Source: Pseudoxanthomonas helianthi
GTDB taxonomy: Bacteria > Pseudomonadota > Gammaproteobacteria > Xanthomonadales > Xanthomonadaceae
Length of the DNA stretch: 64,000 nucleotides
Direction of reading: 5' to 3'
Assembly: GCF_017939625.1 (NCBI RefSeq)
Contig: NZ_JAGKTC010000001.1
Coordinates: forward strand, 900,519-964,518
Each line of letters begins with the position of its first letter. Position 1 is the first letter of the stretch. Positions 2,322 to 11,859 of this stretch are shown piece by piece. Both the position numbers and the translations under genes were made by a program. The notes under the pieces were generated by a model. That model saw only the letters and a list, made by a program, of their open reading frames with translations. It did not search any database and was not told the DNA's origin.

Positions 2322-3443
2322 ATGGCCGAACCACCCCCTGCCCCGCGCCTTCGCCGCGCGCATCTCCCCTGCCTTCCTGCCATCGCGGCCTTGATGCTTT
2401 CCGCGTGCGCGATGCAGCCGCAAACGCCCGAACGCAGCCCCGACGACATCCGCGCCGAGATCGCGCGCAAGCTGCCGGCCAGTCTGGCCGACCGCCGCGG
2501 TTGGGCCAACGATGTCTATGTCGCATTGGTGTCGCAGGACATTCCCGCCAACGCGGCGAACATCTGCGCGGTGCTGGCGGTGACCGAGCAGGAATCGACC
2601 TACCAGACCAACCCGCCGGTGCCGAACCTGGGCCGCATCGCGCGCGAGGAAATCTACCGGCGCGCGGGCGAACACCACGTTCCGCGTTTCGCCGTCGATG
2701 CGGCATTGAAGATGAAGTCGCCCGATGGCCGCAGCTATTCCGACCGCATCGACAGCGTGCGCACCGAGAAGGGCCTCAACGACATCTACGTCGACATGAT
2801 CGCCGAGGTGCCGCTGGGCAAGCGCCTGCTGGCCGGGCTGAACCCAGTGCACACGGCAGGACCGATGCAAGTCAGCATCGATTTTGCCAGGGAACACGCG
2901 GATGGTTATCCGTATCCGCTGGAGCCGGGCAAGACGATCCGCGACGAGGTGTTTACCCGGCGCGGCGGTCTCTACTTCGGCACGAAGCACTTGCTGGGCT
3001 ATCGCACGCATTACGACGTGATGCTGTACCGCTTCGCCGACTTCAACGCGGGCTGGTATGCGAGCCGCAACGCGGCGTTCCAGGCGGCGGTGGCGAAGGC
3101 CAGCGGCATCGACCTGCAACTCGACGGCGATTTGCTCGCACCCGGCGCGTCGATGGGCAAGCCCGGAGGCACCGAACGCGCGGTGCGTTCGCTGGGCGGA
3201 CGCCTTGGCATGGACGACCGCACGATCCGCCGGGCGTTGCAGCAGGCGGATTCGCTGGACTTCGATGAAACCGATCTCTACCGGCGGGTGTTCGAACTTG
3301 CCGACCGCAGCGCCGGCCGGCCACTGCCTCGTGCTGTGCTGCCGGGGATCAAACTGCAAAGCCCGAAGATCACCCGCAACCTGACCACTGCGTGGTTTGC
3401 CAATCGGGTGGACGCACGTTGGAAAAGTTGCATGAAGCGCTGA
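2322..3443 (+). CDS. DUF1615-family lipoprotein
   Basis: Predicted outer-membrane or periplasmic lipoprotein of unknown function. The N-terminus is short and basic, followed by a hydrophobic stretch ending in the lipobox 'LSAC' near residue 29. The mature part has blocks I associate with DUF1615: 'AVTEQESTYQTNPPVPNLG', 'AGPMQVSIDFAREHADGYPY', 'FTRRGGLYFGTKHLLGY' and 'RFADFNAGWYASRNAAFQ'. The conserved E near 'TEQES' and the phrase 'GPMQVS' recall lysozyme-like folds, but this is only an impression. At 373 residues it is family-sized. Its 3' end lies 18 bases from the convergent vsr-like gene, so it marks the left border of the low-GC island. Confidence 0.8.
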   Translation: MAEPPPAPRLRRAHLPCLPAIAALMLSACAMQPQTPERSPDDIRAEIARKLPASLADRRGWANDVYVALVSQDIPANAANICAVLAVTEQESTYQTNPPVPNLGRIAREEIYRRAGEHHVPRFAVDAALKMKSPDGRSYSDRIDSVRTEKGLNDIYVDMIAEVPLGKRLLAGLNPVHTAGPMQVSIDFAREHADGYPYPLEPGKTIRDEVFTRRGGLYFGTKHLLGYRTHYDVMLYRFADFNAGWYASRNAAFQAAVAKASGIDLQLDGDLLAPGASMGKPGGTERAVRSLGGRLGMDDRTIRRALQQADSLDFDETDLYRRVFELADRSAGRPLPRAVLPGIKLQSPKITRNLTTAWFANRVDARWKSCMKR

Positions 3444-3461
3444 ATCTTTCCCGTTTCTCCC

Positions 3462-3869
3462 CTATCTATCTTTAGTTGCGCAGCAAACTCGGTCGGCACA
3501 CGCCGTGACATCAAGTTTGATCTCGTGCTCCCAAATTCGGATTACAGTCCAACCGTTGGTTCTAAGCCAACGGAAATTTCGCCGATCACGGATACGATTA
3601 CCCTCGATTTTTTCCTGCCAGAAAGGAGTCAGCTTGGCTTTCCATCGATGAAATTGATAGCCATGCCAAAAGTCACCATCGACAAACACCACAACCATCG
3701 CACGTGGAAACACAATGTCAGGCCTGCCCGGGAGGGTCTTAACATGCTTGAAAAAGCGCAGCCCGCGACGGTGCAGTTCCGAACGCAACACGCGCTCGGG
3801 CTTGGTATCGACACCCCGGATACGCGCCATCAGGGCGCTTCGCTGCGCGGGCGTCATAACATCAGCCAT
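3462..3869 (-). CDS. vsr: Very-short-patch-repair (Vsr)-type DNA endonuclease
   Basis: Vsr endonucleases nick 5' of the T in T:G mismatches that arise when 5-methylcytosine deaminates, so they accompany C5-cytosine methyltransferases. The 135-residue protein starts MADVMTPAQRSALMARIRG and shows the family blocks 'RSALMARIRGVDTKPE', 'GRPDIVFP' (the Asp matching catalytic D51 of E. coli Vsr), 'FVDGDFWHG' (catalytic FWH) and 'RDRRNFRWLRTNGWTVIRIWEHEI'. The zinc-binding cysteines of E. coli Vsr are absent: Cys of GCFWH is Asp here, and the later ligands are replaced. I chose the ATG at 3869 because an AGGG ribosome site lies just upstream. It is divergent from the adjacent methyltransferase, which fits a repair partner. 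It lies in the low-GC island. Confidence 0.9.
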   Translation of the reverse strand: MADVMTPAQRSALMARIRGVDTKPERVLRSELHRRGLRFFKHVKTLPGRPDIVFPRAMVVVFVDGDFWHGYQFHRWKAKLTPFWQEKIEGNRIRDRRNFRWLRTNGWTVIRIWEHEIKLDVTACADRVCCATKDR

Positions 3870-3905
3870 GCTGACCCTGAAAAAAGCCGGGCAAAAGGTA
3901 TGTAT

Positions 3906-3919
3906 CGTCTCTTGAGACG
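3906..3919. promoter_or_regulatory. Perfect palindrome between vsr and dcm
   Basis: CGTCTC-TT-GAGACG, two 6-base arms around TT, in the 187-base divergent region between the vsr-like and methyltransferase starts. Its position suggests an operator for co-regulation, as C-proteins do in other restriction-modification systems. No controller gene is seen nearby, so the role is inferred from symmetry and location only. Confidence 0.35.
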
Positions 3920-4056
3920 GAGACACTTCACGATTCTACTTCGCCCATAGGAGCAGATGGCGATGTCGTTCATAAACTAGACGAGCGGCCTTGGACAGGT
4001 GCAGGCCAACCCCAAGCCTGGTAACCTGGCGGCGGCACGGTAGCGGAGCAGCGCGC

Positions 4057-5010
4057 ATGAGGGGGCTTGACATTTTTTGCGGCGGGGGCGGCAGCAGCGC
4101 CGGGGCGCGTGCTGCAGGCGTCGAAATGGTGGGGGCCGTAGACATGTGTCCGGTCGCAACCGATACCTATCGGGCCAATTTCAAAGACACTCATGTGGTG
4201 ACAGGCCGCCTGGAGCACATCGTGCTTCCAGCACTTAGGAAACAGGTAGGATCGATCGACATCCTGCTGGCCTCTCCAGAATGCACCAACCACACATGCG
4301 CAAAGGGCGCTGCTCCACGTAGCGAGGAAAGCCGAGCTACAGCGTTATATGCCGTCCAATATGCACGCGCGTTCCGACCCCGATGGATTGTTCTAGAAAA
4401 CGTAGTGCATATGCGCCCCTGGTCGCGCTATGGGGAGCTTAAGCACGAACTGCAGAATCTGGGGTACCACATCGCTGAACAGGTTCTGGATGCCTCCGAC
4501 TACGGCGTGGCGCAGAGCCGGAAACGGTTATTCTTGGTCGGCGATCTCAAGGGGCAGCCCGGGGTGGTGGACCGAAAACGGTCCGGGCCGCGTAAGGGCG
4601 CCAAGTCGATACTGGACAAGCTTGGTACTTGGGATACCACACCATTGTTCACCGATAAGCGAGCTAAAGGTACCCTGGCCCGCGCACATCGGGCCATGGC
4701 AGCCTTGGGTCCGGATAAGCCCTTTCTCATGGTCTATTACGGTAGTGACGGTAGTGGGGGCTGGCAACCATTGGAACGGCCCCTGCGAACAATCACGACA
4801 GTAGACCGCTTCGCGTTGGTCGAGCCGTCTTTGGACGGGCACCGGATGCGGATGTTGCAGGTACCCGAGCTTCAACGGGCTATGGGCTTTGACGACACCT
4901 ACCAGCTTGAAGTCGGCACCCGCCGGGATCGAGTCCGGATATTGGGCAACGGAGTTTGTCCACCCGTCATGACCGAAGTGGTAGCGGCTCTGACCCGGAA
5001 CATGGCCTAG
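4057..5010 (+). CDS. DNA (cytosine-5) methyltransferase, divergent SPEC-motif class
   Basis: Predicted to transfer a methyl group from S-adenosylmethionine to C5 of cytosine within a specific DNA site. The 317-residue protein shows the ordered C5-MTase motifs: I 'LDIFCGGGGSSAGARAAG' (AdoMet binding), IV 'LLASPECTNHT' (catalytic Cys in the variant S-P-E-C rather than P-C-Q), VI 'ENV', VIII 'QSRKRLFLVG', IX 'RPLRTITTVDRFAL' and X 'GNGVCPPVM'. The region between VIII and IX, about 75 residues, would hold the target recognition domain. I start at ATG 4057, directly before motif I, with GGAG upstream. It is divergent from vsr and precedes the ATPase and receiver genes on the same strand. The recognition site cannot be read from the sequence. 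Confidence 0.92.
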   Translation: MRGLDIFCGGGGSSAGARAAGVEMVGAVDMCPVATDTYRANFKDTHVVTGRLEHIVLPALRKQVGSIDILLASPECTNHTCAKGAAPRSEESRATALYAVQYARAFRPRWIVLENVVHMRPWSRYGELKHELQNLGYHIAEQVLDASDYGVAQSRKRLFLVGDLKGQPGVVDRKRSGPRKGAKSILDKLGTWDTTPLFTDKRAKGTLARAHRAMAALGPDKPFLMVYYGSDGSGGWQPLERPLRTITTVDRFALVEPSLDGHRMRMLQVPELQRAMGFDDTYQLEVGTRRDRVRILGNGVCPPVMTEVVAALTRNMA

Positions 5011-5121
5011 TAGGCGACTAGTCCCTGGCAGGCTTTTTGCATGGCAAGATGCTAGCAACGCCTTGGGGAGCACAGAATCTCCCGTGCGCCCTTTCATATG
5101 GCCTAGGGATTCAACGACTAC

Positions 5122-7296
5122 ATGAGCGACGACTCGGCTTTCCGATTCCGGCCCAAGGCGCGAATTCTGCGCCTTCTTGGCGATGAGCTGATCGGCAATC
5201 AACGGCTAGCCATCTTCGAGCTGGTCAAAAATGCCTACGATGCCGACGCCGAGGAGGTAGTGGTAACGCTAGCCCAGCTTGGCACGCCATCAGCCTCGAT
5301 CACCGTAAGAGATGATGGCGATGGAATGGACGAGGCGACAATACGCGACGTTTGGTTCGTACCTGGGGCCGATCATCGCGGTCGTCAGCGTAGAGAGGGC
5401 CGACGTACTCAACGTTTTAGCCGCCTGCCGCTAGGAGAGAAAGGTCTGGGTCGGTTCGCCGTCCATAAACTGGGCGAGCGGATCCGATTGGTCACGCGCG
5501 CGATTGGTGACCCTGTCGAACGTCAAGTAGAGATCGACTGGGACAAGATTCTTGGCGATGGCTATCTCGAAGACTTGCAGTTACAGGTTGGCAAGCGCGA
5601 GCCAGTCACATTTCCAGGCGACAGCCATGGAACTGAGGTGGTAATTGAAGGACTAAGGCAAGACGAGTGGACACGGGGCGATCTGCGCCGCCTTTATCGA
5701 CAAGTGACATCGATCTGCTCGCCCTTCGCCGCCGAGCGTGAATTCTCTGTCGAATTGAAGCTCCCAGGCCGGGAAATCGACCTCGAAGGCCTGCCCACGG
5801 TCGGCGATATCCTTGACAAGGCGCTGTGGCATTACACCTTCTCGCTCGACGAACAGGGACAATTCACCTGGACGTACGCGTTCATCAACCGCCTCGTCGG
5901 CGTGGATCTAGCAAACCGCACTGTGAACGGAATGCTGCAGCCGCTGCAACTAGACGATCAGGCCGATGAAGCTGCTGAGGAAGCAATGCCGCGCAAACAA
6001 CGCCGCGGCAAGGGTCGTAATAGGGTCGTGGTCGATACTGATTTTCTAAAGGGCATTGGCCCCTTAGAAGGCGAGTTCTTTGTATTCGATCGAGACAAGG
6101 AAGTGCTTACCAGGATGTCCGAACCGGATCTGATGACCCGCTATTTGAACGAGAACGGCGGGATACGCGTCTATCGCGATGCGATACGCGTTTACAACTA
6201 TGGCGAGCGAGGCGACGATTGGCTGGGGCTGGATCTACGCCGTGTGAACCAGCCTACGATTCGTGTAAGCCGGAATGTTGTACTGGCTGCAATCAATCTG
6301 AGTCTTGAACACAGCACGGATCTGGTAGAAAAGACTAATCGAGAAGGTTTCGTCGAGAACGACGCCTATCGTCGACTGAGGCGGATCGTACTGGCATCAC
6401 TTGCCGCGCTTGAAGCCGAACGGCAGGACGACAAGGACCGTTTGCGACAGTTATTGGGGAAAAAAGAGGGGATAGAGCGCTTCGATGCCAGCCCTCCAAT
6501 AGAAGCCTTGCGGAAGGAAGCCAAGCGAATCCAGGTTGACGAGGCCTTGGAACCATTCATCAACCGCATTGAGGCGGAATTCGACGCATTGAAAGATACC
6601 CTGGTTCACGCGGGATTCTCGGGCATGGGACTAGCGGTCGTCTTCCACGAGATCGACCGAGGCGTTCGCGAACTACTTGCAGCGTTCAAATCTGGCGGTG
6701 AGAGATCGGCACTAGAACGCAAGGCGATCGACTTGTCGCAGCTACTAGACGGGTTCAGCACACTGCTACGGCGTAGTGGCCGCAAGTCGATGCGGGCGTC
6801 CGAACTCATACGCCAAGCACGCGATATATCCGTGGCTCGTTTCCGTTATCACCAAGTTACTCTTCACTGCCCAATTCTCGAAAATGCCTCTCAGGACTTT
6901 GAGGCAGTTATGGCTCGCGAGCTCATGGTAGGCGCGTTGACCAATCTGATCGACAATGCGCTGTACTGGCTGCGAGTCCGCTGGCCCGACGTATCCGCTG
7001 GCGAGCCATCGGCTCGCAAGATTCATATTGGAACAAGTCTCGATCTGGAAGGTGGCCCTGCGATTATCGTCGCTGACAACGGGCCTGGCTTCCGTGATCT
7101 GCCCGAACTGTTGACCAAGCCGTTCTTCACTCGACGTCCGGACGGCATGGGCCTGGGGCTGTACTACGTGAAGCTCGCAATGGAGCTATCTGGGGGGACT
7201 TTGCAGTTTCCAAGTGCTGCGGATGTAGGCCTGTCGGATGAATACGACGGCGCAATCATCGCGCTGGTCTTCAACAATACCAAGGGAGGTGGTTGA
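5122..7296 (+). CDS. Double-GHKL protein: MutL/HSP90-like ATPase domain plus C-terminal histidine-kinase-like module
   Basis: A 724-residue soluble protein with two separate GHKL ATP-binding domains. The first (residues about 20-220) has 'FELVKNAYDADA' (motif N, E33/N37), 'RDDGDGM' (64-69) and 'GEKGLGRFA' (105-113), as in HSP90, MutL and MORC proteins. The middle is a long mixed region with a basic patch near 'PRKQRRGKGRN'. The C-terminal third resembles a histidine kinase: 'GMGLAVVFHEIDRGV' offers a phosphoacceptor H509 followed by E510, then 'NLIDNALYW' (N box), 'DNGPGF' (G1) and 'DGMGLGLYYVKLAMELSGG' (G2). No membrane segment is seen, so it should sense something in the cytoplasm, perhaps DNA state. 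Its stop overlaps the start of the receiver gene (TGATG), so the two are translationally coupled. Low GC like its neighbours. Function inferred. Confidence 0.85.
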   Translation: MSDDSAFRFRPKARILRLLGDELIGNQRLAIFELVKNAYDADAEEVVVTLAQLGTPSASITVRDDGDGMDEATIRDVWFVPGADHRGRQRREGRRTQRFSRLPLGEKGLGRFAVHKLGERIRLVTRAIGDPVERQVEIDWDKILGDGYLEDLQLQVGKREPVTFPGDSHGTEVVIEGLRQDEWTRGDLRRLYRQVTSICSPFAAEREFSVELKLPGREIDLEGLPTVGDILDKALWHYTFSLDEQGQFTWTYAFINRLVGVDLANRTVNGMLQPLQLDDQADEAAEEAMPRKQRRGKGRNRVVVDTDFLKGIGPLEGEFFVFDRDKEVLTRMSEPDLMTRYLNENGGIRVYRDAIRVYNYGERGDDWLGLDLRRVNQPTIRVSRNVVLAAINLSLEHSTDLVEKTNREGFVENDAYRRLRRIVLASLAALEAERQDDKDRLRQLLGKKEGIERFDASPPIEALRKEAKRIQVDEALEPFINRIEAEFDALKDTLVHAGFSGMGLAVVFHEIDRGVRELLAAFKSGGERSALERKAIDLSQLLDGFSTLLRRSGRKSMRASELIRQARDISVARFRYHQVTLHCPILENASQDFEAVMARELMVGALTNLIDNALYWLRVRWPDVSAGEPSARKIHIGTSLDLEGGPAIIVADNGPGFRDLPELLTKPFFTRRPDGMGLGLYYVKLAMELSGGTLQFPSAADVGLSDEYDGAIIALVFNNTKGGG

Positions 7297-8564
7297 TGTT
7301 CGGCTCTGGTCGTATTGTCGTCATTGATGATGAAGAGGCCTATCTGACGCAACTAGCCGGGACGCTTCATCGGATGGGAGTGCCCTGTATTCCCATTCAT
7401 TACACCGGAGGTATACCCGAAGACGCTGGATGGCTGAGCGGTTGTCGTATCGCATTTTGCGATCTGCATCTGATGCCAGCAGCAGCGAACATCAAATCAA
7501 ACTATGCGGCCATCGGGTCACTTCTGGACAGAATGGCTACGAAGGAATCTTCACTGCTACTAGTGCTCTGGACTAGGTACCCAGAGGATGCTGCCGGGCT
7601 GGAGGAGTATCTCGCCGAGCGACATCCGGACTCCGTTCCCGCGACGATTCTGCCATTGGATAAAAAGGATTTCGGGGGGGATCGCGGCGCTGATCTGCCG
7701 AATGCGGTACGTGACAAGCTGCAGGGCATTCCGCAGCTGCGTGCGCTCTACGAGTGGCAGGATGATGTGTCCACTGCTGCGGCCGCATGTGTTGGATCGT
7801 TAGTAGGCTTGGCTAGGGGTATGGACGGAGACATGAATGGAAGCCTGGACAAAGTCCTTAGCGCGCTTGCTCAGAAAGCTACTGGCGTGGAGATTGCTGC
7901 TGCCCATCCAGGCGCTGCATTGCAGGACATCCTTTCGGCGTTGCTAGCAGATCGACTCTCTCACCTGCCTGAGGACGCACAGCACGATGAACTTTGGAAG
8001 AAAGCCATGCCAAGTGCAATGGCTAGCACTAAGTGCGGGGCTGCCGTCGTTGGAGGTGTCGCAGCAATCAACACGGCACTGCATATCGCCCATCCGCATG
8101 GCGAACATATGAGTGGCCGAGACCGCGGCGCCGTGATTGCCGTGCCATGCCCCAGCCTGTTCCGGCATCGTTTTGCATCCAATGAGAAAGCAGTACGGGA
8201 AAAGTTCGCCATCAAGCACGATACGCCCGTGAGGTGGGTTGGCATACAGATAGAGGCCAGCTGCGATCATGCTCAACGTAAGTCGTTGAGCATTCCATAC
8301 ATATTGGGTGCAGAGGTCGCATCAGATACGAAACCTACCAATAGCAGTCCCGCCGTATGGAAGTCTCCGGTATTCCTCTCTGAGAAGAAGGAAGCGGTCA
8401 AGATATTCGCGAATGTTGGATTGACTACCTCCATATCATGGAAGCGAGCGGAAGGTAGGTCGGTCCTCTATCGGTTTCGCGATCCGTTGGTGAGCGCCCT
8501 GACTGTAATCAAGGCGCAACATGAGATGCGTCCCGGCATCATTTCGCTCGACGGACGCGATTGA
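7296..8564 (+). CDS. Response-regulator-like protein: receiver domain plus unrecognised C-terminal domain
   Basis: 422 residues from the ATG at 7296, which overlaps the kinase-like gene's stop by one base. Residues about 5-130 form a receiver domain: acidic pair D11/D12 in 'VVIDDEE', phosphoacceptor candidate D56 in 'IAFCDLHL', Thr in 'LLVLWTRYP', and Lys in 'LDKKD'. The remaining 290 residues match no output domain I recognise. No helix-turn-helix, GGDEF, HD-GYP or nuclease motif is visible; there are alanine-rich helices around 'LVGLARGMDGDMNG' and 'LSALLADRLSHLPEDAQHDELW', and a region with 'NTALHIAHPHGEH'. The natural reading is that the upstream double-GHKL protein phosphorylates it and the C-terminal part acts on the methyltransferase or nuclease. 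That is inference. Confidence 0.8.
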   Translation: MFGSGRIVVIDDEEAYLTQLAGTLHRMGVPCIPIHYTGGIPEDAGWLSGCRIAFCDLHLMPAAANIKSNYAAIGSLLDRMATKESSLLLVLWTRYPEDAAGLEEYLAERHPDSVPATILPLDKKDFGGDRGADLPNAVRDKLQGIPQLRALYEWQDDVSTAAAACVGSLVGLARGMDGDMNGSLDKVLSALAQKATGVEIAAAHPGAALQDILSALLADRLSHLPEDAQHDELWKKAMPSAMASTKCGAAVVGGVAAINTALHIAHPHGEHMSGRDRGAVIAVPCPSLFRHRFASNEKAVREKFAIKHDTPVRWVGIQIEASCDHAQRKSLSIPYILGAEVASDTKPTNSSPAVWKSPVFLSEKKEAVKIFANVGLTTSISWKRAEGRSVLYRFRDPLVSALTVIKAQHEMRPGIISLDGRD

Positions 8565-8604
8565 TCGCGTGGCGACTTCTTCGAGTATCTAGTCAGCTGT
8601 CTAA

Positions 8605-9099
8605 ATGAAAGACCTTCGTGAGCTTGGAGTTCAAGAGCTTCTCGATCTTCGGGCCGAGATAGAGAAGGAGCTCGCAAGCAGGGGGCTTTCTAGCGCCGTT
8701 GGCGACATCGGTGAGAGGCTTGCCATTGAGTATTTCGCTAAACGACCGGATCTGCCAGTTCTCGTTCCAGCGCCGCGCGGGACAAAGAACATTGATGCAT
8801 TGTCAAGACGCGGCGAACGCTATTCGATCAAAACGCTTCAGCGTGCCAGAAAGACCGGAACAATTTATCCGGACCCGGAAGAGAATTGTCATCCAATGTT
8901 CGAATACATGCTGATCGTGCTGTTGAGCAATCGATATGAGCTTCAAAAACTTTATCGGTTATCGTGGGACCAGTTTGTTCAGCTGCGAAGCTGGGACAGG
9001 CGAATGCATGCTTGGTATGTCGCCCGATCCGGACGAGTGCTTGATGCAGCGGAAGATCTCACTCCACTGCACTTATCGTGTAGCGACAGCATCGTATAG
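8605..9099 (+). CDS. Small PD-(D/E)XK-like protein, possible restriction nuclease of the island
   Basis: 164 residues. After a helical N-terminus ('LGVQELLDLRAEIEKELASRG') comes 'GDIGERLAIEYFAKRP' (E37), then 'TKNIDALSRRGERYSIKTL', with D64 and K76 spaced like the D-(E/x)-x-K core of PD-(D/E)XK nucleases, although the middle acidic residue is Ser here (S-I-K). The C-terminal half is rich in aromatic residues ('LYRLSWDQFVQLRSWD', 'HAWYVA'). I recall similar small proteins annotated only as DUFs next to methyltransferases, but cannot check. It is the last gene of the low-GC run, 40 bases after the receiver gene, and stops 21 bases before a strong terminator. If this is a restriction system, it is the best candidate for the cutting subunit. 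Confidence 0.6.
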   Translation: MKDLRELGVQELLDLRAEIEKELASRGLSSAVGDIGERLAIEYFAKRPDLPVLVPAPRGTKNIDALSRRGERYSIKTLQRARKTGTIYPDPEENCHPMFEYMLIVLLSNRYELQKLYRLSWDQFVQLRSWDRRMHAWYVARSGRVLDAAEDLTPLHLSCSDSIV

Positions 9100-9120
9100 G
9101 AGCAACGAAAGTCCCGAATG

Positions 9121-9146
9121 AAAAAGCGGCCTCCTGGCCGCTTTTT
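9121..9146. terminator. Bidirectional intrinsic terminator between the island and aceE
   Basis: Perfect 11-base stem AAAAAGCGGCC / GGCCGCTTTTT with a TCCT loop. A-runs and T-runs flank it so that it ends transcription on both strands: after the small nuclease-like gene (+) and after aceE (-). It forms the right border of the low-GC island. Confidence 0.85.
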
Positions 9147-9168
9147 CGTTTCATCTTATAGAGAAGAA

Positions 9169-11859
<2,691 letters not shown>

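What the first reader, a model, noticed from the sequence alone, without database searches (positions are those of the whole stretch)
3462..9099. Low-GC island joining a C5-methyltransferase/Vsr pair to a double-GHKL kinase-like protein, a receiver protein and a small nuclease-like protein
Five adjacent genes share lower G+C than the flanks and end at a bidirectional terminator. Methyltransferase plus Vsr is a known pair, but here the next genes encode a HisKA/GHKL-like protein and a CheY-like receiver overlapping by one base, then a PD-(D/E)XK-like candidate. A phosphorelay inside a restriction-modification cassette would let cells switch cutting on by signal rather than by methylation state alone. 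I know of MutL-like ATPases and Z1 proteins linked to methyltransferases, but not of a characterised system with this gene set.
Basis: partly seen in the sequence, partly recalled or inferred. Interest (0 to 1): 0.87.

Follow-up and report, generated by a model that had tools for sequence, protein, structure and literature searches.

The report
Two-component signalling pair in restriction cassette
Five adjacent bacterial genes combine a DNA-marking enzyme, its repair helper and a probable DNA-cutting enzyme with a signalling kinase and its receiver; the same partnership recurs in distant bacteria, which suggests that defence by DNA cutting may be controlled by a signal.

Summary
In detail: a low-GC five-gene island (vsr, C5 methyltransferase, double-GHKL kinase, receiver protein, small nuclease-like gene) sits between a lipoprotein-like gene and aceE. 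The grouping is not chance. In 86 related loci from many phyla a receiver match lies directly downstream of the kinase in 85, a C5 methyltransferase is found in 78 (64 within 2 kb), vsr in 56, and all five families in 6 (four phyla). Phosphorelay residues are invariant (His509 85/85, Asp56 80/80). The theme is not unknown: Bellieny-Rabelo et al. 2021 described double-GHKL kinases linked to receiver proteins, C5 methyltransferases and Vsr. But neither of their Pfam domains recognises this clade at cut-off, so I file it as a new variant. Two results go further. (1) The receiver protein ends in a conserved beta-barrel whose nearest solved fold is MazF, at modest score and without sequence support. 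(2) Nuclease type follows the methyltransferase more than the kinase; kinase and receiver are one co-inherited module used with different restriction-modification pairs. Best reading: a phosphorelay that controls a type II-like restriction system after translation. Phosphotransfer, cleavage and phage defence are untested, and eight literature searches found no experimental study.

The parts
3462..3926 (-). vsr, very-short-patch mismatch endonuclease (likely start ATG at 3869)
   Evidence: PF03852 3e-25 and TIGR00632 above cut-off; relative in L015 starts at the 3869 methionine
4057..5010 (+). C5-cytosine DNA methyltransferase
   Evidence: PF00145 9.1e-36; best PADLOC model DrmMII PDLC02654 7.4e-85; the only PF00145 match in the own genome (G000)
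5122..7296 (+). double-GHKL histidine-kinase-like protein (724 aa), soluble-looking
   Evidence: HATPase_c_3 + HATPase_c; N-terminal half resembles BbrUII/HgiDII restriction enzymes, 1.8e-20, far below that model's cut-off; highest 19-residue hydropathy 1.22
5209..5577 (+). N-terminal MutL/MORC-type GHKL domain, residues 30-152
   Evidence: PF13589 6.5e-16
6646..6648 (+). His509 codon (H-box)
   Evidence: His in 85 of 85 kinases; next residue Glu in 78 of 85
6934..7224 (+). C-terminal kinase-type ATPase (CA) domain, residues 605-701
   Evidence: PF02518, whole-protein E-value 4.5e-17; N608, D611, N612, D652, G654, G656, G677, G679 in 85 of 85
7296..8564 (+). receiver protein (422 aa), overlapping the kinase stop by one base
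   Evidence: receiver match directly downstream of the kinase in 85 of 86 loci
7296..7721 (+). CheY-like receiver domain, residues 1-142
   Evidence: AlphaFold2 mean pLDDT 91.6 for the whole protein; Foldseek best hits FixJ 3.5e-4 and RssB 1.1e-3
7461..7463 (+). Asp56 codon (phospho-acceptor)
   Evidence: Asp in 80 of 80 receivers; D11 80/80, D12 75/80, T or S at 93 in 72/80, K123 79/80 (whose table numbers from the TTG, one higher)
8079..8561 (+). C-terminal beta-barrel output domain, residues 262-422, invariant G278, C323-D324, R412
   Evidence: AlphaFold2 mean pLDDT 92.3; nearest solved fold MazF 7bxy (E 0.018, TM 0.61 by target), MoxT third; invariance 72 of 72
8605..9099 (+). small nuclease candidate (164 aa), PADLOC 'methyl-directed' type II family
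   Evidence: PDLC03213 5.7e-54; E37, D64, S74-x-K76 invariant in 6 relatives
9117..9150 (.). inverted repeat between the convergent cassette and aceE, possible bidirectional terminator
   Evidence: 15-nt arms, 93% complementary, 4-nt loop; not listed by the terminator scan

Best explanation
This is a type II-like restriction-modification cassette (C5 MTase, Vsr to repair deaminated 5mC, small nuclease) that carries a two-component pair as a control module. Inferred mechanism: the N-terminal MutL/MORC-type GHKL clamp of the kinase replaces the usual sensor and responds to a DNA or nucleotide state linked to invasion; the C-terminal CA domain phosphorylates His509; the phosphate passes to Asp56 of the receiver protein; this frees or rotates the C-terminal barrel domain, which acts on a cassette protein or nucleic acid rather than as a classical DNA-binding transcription factor, and so licenses or restrains restriction. 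Shown: gene set, recurrence, co-inheritance, invariant phosphorelay residues, receiver fold (predicted), conserved output barrel (predicted). Inferred: signal, phosphotransfer, target and direction of control.
For: 86 loci (window, L017, L007-L010, L024-L103): receiver match directly downstream of the kinase in 85, the exception L102 ending 444 bp after the kinase. C5 MTase in 78 (within 5 bp or overlapping in 15, within 2 kb in 64, within 5 kb in 76), Vsr in 56, all with a MTase; ORF5 family in 6. Background: 56 of 119 genomes of the window's family have a C5 MTase match and the own genome has one in 3.59 Mb, so by simple arithmetic about 1% of 22-kb stretches would hold one; other phyla were not measured. 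H509 85/85, D56 80/80, K123 79/80. Distance correlations: kinase-receiver 0.886 (85 loci), kinase-MTase 0.29 (78), kinase-Vsr 0.48 (56), none reached in 2000 permutations. Nuclease class needs 1 change on the MTase tree and 3 on the kinase tree, 26 labelled loci. Receiver fold. C-terminal domain aligned to that of eight cousin receivers, three of them PF19192 proteins (hhalign probability 91.7%, E 1e-7). All five families together in window, L024, L077, L086, L092, L093 in several orders. dN/dS against L015: MTase 0.049, kinase 0.044, with dS already 1.5-1.6.
Against: No experiment: phosphotransfer, cleavage and phage resistance are untested. The receiver protein has no recognised target. ORF5 relatives lie within 6 kb of an annotated Vsr in 5 of 5 inspected plasmid loci and of an annotated C5 MTase in 4 of 5, with no kinase-receiver pair annotated there (5 of the 8 records inspected), so the nuclease does not need the pair. 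8 of 86 loci lack a detectable C5 MTase; two of these are contigs of 3 and 6 kb. Of the 86 loci, 80 are the best of 448 confirmed hits of a capped scan, chosen by likeness to this kinase; they are related and include near-copies, which inflates the permutation tests. The nuclease is not random on the kinase tree either: 11 changes, as low in 2 of 200 shuffles.
Confidence: 0.55

Rival explanations
1. The kinase-receiver pair is its own effector, a back-up killing module: when modification or restriction fails, phosphorylated receiver protein unleashes a MazF-like barrel that stops the cell.
For: Top fold hit of the isolated output domain is MazF 7bxy and the third is MoxT; several PemK-like viral models among the weak hits of the whole protein; the pair stays together while R-M partners change.
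Against: No fold hit reaches E 0.001. No PemK_toxin among the Pfam families of 72 members at E <= 0.5. Profile comparison with 25 PemK sequences gives probability 0.04%, no better than unrelated pairs. A K or R ten residues before the CD motif, where the MazF arginine might lie (placement recalled), is seen in only 37 of 72.
Confidence: 0.17
2. The double-GHKL protein is a restriction subunit like the MORC/paraMORC ATPases: an ATP-driven DNA clamp or remodeller that works with the nuclease, with the receiver protein as a stable partner and no real signalling.
Against: H-box/CA and receiver catalytic residues are kept across phyla, more than a structural role needs. In L009, L057, L079 and L080 MORC-like genes and the pair occur in the same locus, so the pair is not simply a stand-in for them.
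Confidence: 0.18
3. The pair regulates expression of the cassette or of other genes as an atypical transcriptional two-component system.
For: Co-inheritance with R-M genes; R-M systems are often transcriptionally controlled (general knowledge).
Against: No DNA-binding domain recognised in the 72 receivers scanned beyond scattered weak hits; the output is a barrel domain.
Confidence: 0.06
4. Chance hitch-hiking of an unrelated signalling pair in a defence island.
For: The aceE flank is a defence hotspot with changing content.
Against: C5 MTase in 78 of 86 loci, within 2 kb in 64; MTase and kinase genes abut or overlap in 15 loci.
Confidence: 0.04

Closest known systems
HEF_HK / Response_reg_2 two-component-like pairs (Pfam PF19191/PF19192; Bellieny-Rabelo et al. 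2021, PMC8011034)
   Same: HATPase_c_3 + DHp-like + HATPase_c kinase next to a receiver protein, with C5 MTase, Vsr and variable type II nucleases; C-terminal output domain that aligns with this one.
   Different: Neither Pfam model reaches its cut-off in the own genome or in 7 other records, 4 of which hold this clade; the only trace is a sub-threshold PF19191 match (E 0.024) inside the Burkholderia glumae kinase. Here the kinase has 724 and the receiver 422 residues; three PF19192-bearing loci have 991-1003 and 555-617.
MORC / paraMORC GHKL ATPases in R-M operons (Iyer et al. 2008, PMC2292703)
   Same: MutL-like N-terminal GHKL in cassettes with DNA methylases, Vsr and RE-fold nucleases.
   Different: In the parts of that paper I read, paraMORC extensions are RE-fold, TIR or unknown domains; here a histidine-kinase half is fused and a receiver protein follows.
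Classical type II R-M with Vsr (Dcm/Vsr, EcoRII, MvaI type)
   Same: C5 MTase, Vsr and a nuclease whose type goes with the MTase clade.
   Different: Extra signalling pair; this cassette's nuclease belongs to a small 'methyl-directed' PADLOC family rather than EcoRII/MvaI.
VcSduA (paraMORC3 / Shedu type I-D, PMC12137116)
   Same: A GHKL ATPase domain coupled to nuclease-based phage defence; both activities needed there.
   Different: One protein with a fused nuclease; no methyltransferase or phosphorelay in the passages read.

Membership tests
HEF_HK / Response_reg_2 family | PF19192 match over cut-off in the receiver protein | tested here: not met
   No PF19192 match at E <= 1 in the window protein, not among the 21 families matched by 72 members at E <= 0.5, none in 8 genomes or records at E <= 10
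HEF_HK / Response_reg_2 family | PF19191 match over cut-off in the kinase | tested here: not met
   Absent at E <= 1; 0 of 8 genomes or records over the cut-off, one sub-threshold match inside the B. glumae kinase at E 0.024
HEF_HK / Response_reg_2 family | HATPase_c_3, conserved His, HATPase_c in one soluble-looking protein, adjacent to a receiver protein and C5 MTase/Vsr | tested here: met
   19-residue hydropathy peak 1.22 in the window kinase, under 1.6 in 81 of 85; no dedicated transmembrane predictor was run
Two-component system | H-box His, CA domain boxes, receiver DD-D-T/S-K | tested here: met
   and predicted receiver fold
Two-component system | Phosphotransfer from kinase to receiver | not testable with these tools
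   Needs biochemistry
Type II restriction-modification | DNA methyltransferase | tested here: met
   PF00145 9.1e-36
Type II restriction-modification | Nuclease that cuts the MTase's sequence when unmodified | not testable with these tools
   ORF5 is a candidate only
Vsr | PF03852 / TIGR00632 above cut-off | tested here: met
MORC / paraMORC | MutL-like GHKL at the N-terminus | tested here: met
   PF13589 above cut-off
MORC / paraMORC | S5 domain after the GHKL domain | not tested
   The kinase was not modelled
MazF / PemK toxins | Fold of the output domain | tested here: inconclusive
   7bxy first (E 0.018, probability 1.00, TM 0.61 by target, 0.47 by query), MoxT third (probability 0.97); the other 48 listed rows appear to be antibody chains at probability 0.28 or less; 0 hits at E <= 0.001
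MazF / PemK toxins | Sequence family match | tested here: not met
   PF02452 not among the families matched; hhalign 0.04% against a rough alignment of 25 PemK sequences
DISARM | drmA, drmB or drmC genes beside the DrmMII-like MTase | tested here: not met
   The other four proteins of the cassette match no drm model; genes further out were not scanned

The most novel reading that the evidence does not exclude
Signal-gated cutting of the cell's own mark: in this MTase clade the recognised nuclease partners (ORF5 family and AspBHI-like proteins) belong to families whose scanned members match models named methyl-directed, yet they sit beside a C5 methyltransferase. If they do cut methylated DNA, the cassette would mark DNA first and cut it only when the phosphorelay and its barrel-domain output permit: a phosphorylation-licensed self-destruct rather than classical restriction.
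Probability: 0.07. Interest if true: 0.92.

Novelty: new variant of a known kind. Interest (0 to 1): 0.6.

Why it matters
Restriction is normally treated as governed by methylation state and gene expression. A conserved phosphorelay carried with R-M genes from Lysobacterales to Chloroflexota would be a post-translational control layer, with a DNA-clamp-type ATPase in the place of a sensor. The two invariant phospho-sites and the separable barrel domain make the idea testable with point mutants. No experimental characterisation was found in eight full-text searches of an open-access library; subscription papers are mostly not held there.

Tried and rejected
Pfam, NCBIfam and PADLOC gave nothing for the receiver protein, so its fold was modelled. 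PF19191 and PF19192 were tried as family names and failed at cut-off. A sequence-profile link of the output domain to PemK was sought and not found. In that call one of six column-shuffled controls of the cousin alignment scored 99.6% against PemK, an unexplained artefact, so single hhalign values there carry little weight, including the 91.7% that I use. DISARM was considered because of the DrmMII-like MTase and dropped. ORF5 had one irrelevant PDB hit (L29, E 0.24). dS was saturated or undefined for Vsr, receiver and ORF5, so no ratio is claimed for them. Searching viral contigs with the diverse receiver alignment failed. Neighbouring ORFs were called by a crude greedy method and unlabelled ORFs in high-GC loci are often spurious, so absence of a nuclease in a locus is not claimed. 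Nuclease families were recognised in at least 31 of 86 loci: AspBHI-like 9, EcoRII-C 8, MvaI/BcnI 6, ORF5 6 (one Pfam-scanned representative each for the first three), HNH in L098 and a PADLOC REase_II in L097. Searches scanned 11 hand-picked neighbours in all; the rest were a transposase, an integrase, a methylmalonyl-CoA mutase, a macro-domain/DarG protein, DzbA and DzbB, a type I restriction subunit, and two without a hit. Dropped rows: kinases under 600 aa (1 of 86) and receivers under 400 aa (5 of 85); 72 of the 85 receivers went into A3; 3 of 29 nuclease-labelled loci. Trees are quick trees without bootstrap, and the MTase tree carries a long-branch warning.
Full report
Observation. The five ORFs, the GC drop, the one-base overlap and the inverted repeat before aceE are all present. 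Vsr and MTase are clear family members, and the GHKL protein has HATPase_c_3 at the N-terminus and HATPase_c at the C-terminus. The receiver protein has no family hit by sequence.

What it is. A profile of eight kinases brought in 80 loci from a species-level genome collection (the best 80 of 448 confirmed hits of a capped scan), and plasmid searches gave named relatives on Burkholderia glumae, Rhizobium and Agrobacterium plasmids. In the working set of 86 loci a receiver match lies directly downstream of the kinase in 85; a few of these are broken or cut. C5 MTase is found in 78, Vsr in 56, the ORF5 family in 6; the MTase is within 2 kb of the kinase in 64 and within 5 kb in 76. All five families occur together in the window, L024 (Lysobacterales; apparently the same contig as L015, equal length), L077 (Anaerolineales), L086 (Gallionella), L092 (Acidobacteria) and L093 (Gemmatimonadetes), in several orders. 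The set is biased to close relatives of this kinase and includes near-duplicates such as L062/L063 and L046/L047.

Phosphorelay residues. His509 is invariant in 85 of 85 long kinases. In 80 long receivers D11 and D56 are invariant, D12 is kept in 75, K123 in 79, and position 93 is T or S in 72. AlphaFold2 on 72 sequences gave mean pLDDT 91.6, with a receiver fold at residues 1-142, a helical middle and a beta-barrel at the end. Foldseek matches the first part to FixJ, RssB and many receivers. The window kinase has no strongly hydrophobic stretch (peak 1.22); 4 of 85 kinases exceed 1.6.

Output domain. Residues 262-422 fold confidently alone (pLDDT 92.3). The best solved match is MazF 7bxy (E 0.018, probability 1.00, TM 0.61 normalised by the target) and the third is MoxT; the other listed rows appear to be antibody chains at low probability, and no hit reaches 0.001. 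Sequence gives no PemK support, and the invariant residues G278, C323-D324 and R412 are not the MazF catalytic set as I recall it. A like domain with a CD motif ends eight cousin receivers, three of them PF19192 proteins. I therefore call it a conserved barrel of MazF-like topology, function open.

Modularity. Pairwise distances correlate strongly between kinase and receiver (0.886), weakly between kinase and MTase (0.29). On trees of 77 loci, the split between ORF5/AspBHI-like and EcoRII/MvaI nucleases needs one change on the MTase tree and three on the kinase tree; with four labels 7 against 11, shuffled mean 14.9 (26 labelled loci). Even 11 is reached by only 2 of 200 shuffles, so the nuclease is not random on the kinase tree either. 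I read this as MTase and nuclease forming the specificity pair, with the kinase-receiver pair an exchangeable accessory. ORF5 relatives also live near Vsr (5 of 5 inspected loci) and C5 MTases (4 of 5) on rhizobial and Exiguobacterium plasmids, without the pair annotated nearby. On the kinase tree Pseudomonadota need 12 changes (shuffled mean 19.3), so phyla are partly mixed and partly clustered; this does not prove transfer.

Literature. Bellieny-Rabelo et al. 2021 (PMC8011034; [quoted passage not shown] Iyer et al. 2008 (PMC2292703; abstract and two parts read) describe MORC and paraMORC ATPases in R-M operons. HEF_HK is named in two held papers (the second seen in the listing only). VcSduA (PMC12137116) and the BREX survey (PMC12839542) were read as passages only.

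Mechanism. Shown: composition, recurrence, co-inheritance and catalytic residues; predicted with confidence: receiver fold and output barrel. Inferred: the GHKL clamp senses a DNA or nucleotide state, His509 to Asp56 transfer follows, and the barrel acts on restriction after translation. The main rivals are a toxin-like output and a MORC-like restriction subunit. The name 'methyl-directed' on the PADLOC models matched by ORF5 and by the scanned AspBHI-like nuclease, beside a C5 MTase, is unexplained; it may be only a label.

Site. The same lipoprotein-aceE gap holds a different Vsr/C5 MTase pair in G666, the closest other genome by AceE among those listed (95%). Two other relatives of the seven inspected there carry R-M or related genes near aceE (G675, G174), and G061 and G015 carry relatives of this cassette beside aceE.

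Noticed in passing
window 3443-9169; L185, L187, L191, L015, L017: The flank of aceE looks like a defence-gene hotspot: another Vsr/C5 MTase pair in L185, Vsr/MTase/GHKL in L187, an MvaI-like nuclease and an OLD-like ATPase (by eye) in L191, relatives of this cassette in L015 and L017; four other inspected loci (L186, L188-L190) showed none of the searched families.
   Followed up: partly
L011, L012, L120: Cousin modules: double-GHKL kinase and a short receiver-like protein of 220-228 aa; on the two annotated plasmids preceded by a type I-M or N-6 DNA methylase and followed by an MBL-fold hydrolase, with similar-sized ORFs in L120; no comparable CD motif seen by eye.
   Followed up: no
L031, L033, L045, L055, L066, L080, L083, L088, L095: AspBHI-like nucleases (Mrr catalytic domain and AspBHI N-terminal domain found in the one scanned, L080) occur in kinase-receiver loci, eight of nine with a C5 MTase, a puzzle if they are 5mC-dependent.
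   Followed up: partly
IMG/VR loci L192-L258; MT838277.1: 67 viral-collection loci encode relatives of the kinase, the closest at 51-52% identity, so the module may ride on prophages or satellites.
   Followed up: no
L123 4035-12850: A distant double-GHKL kinase with a 301-aa receiver-like neighbour and a 1833-aa upstream ORF, without the CD motif; possibly another system type.
   Followed up: no
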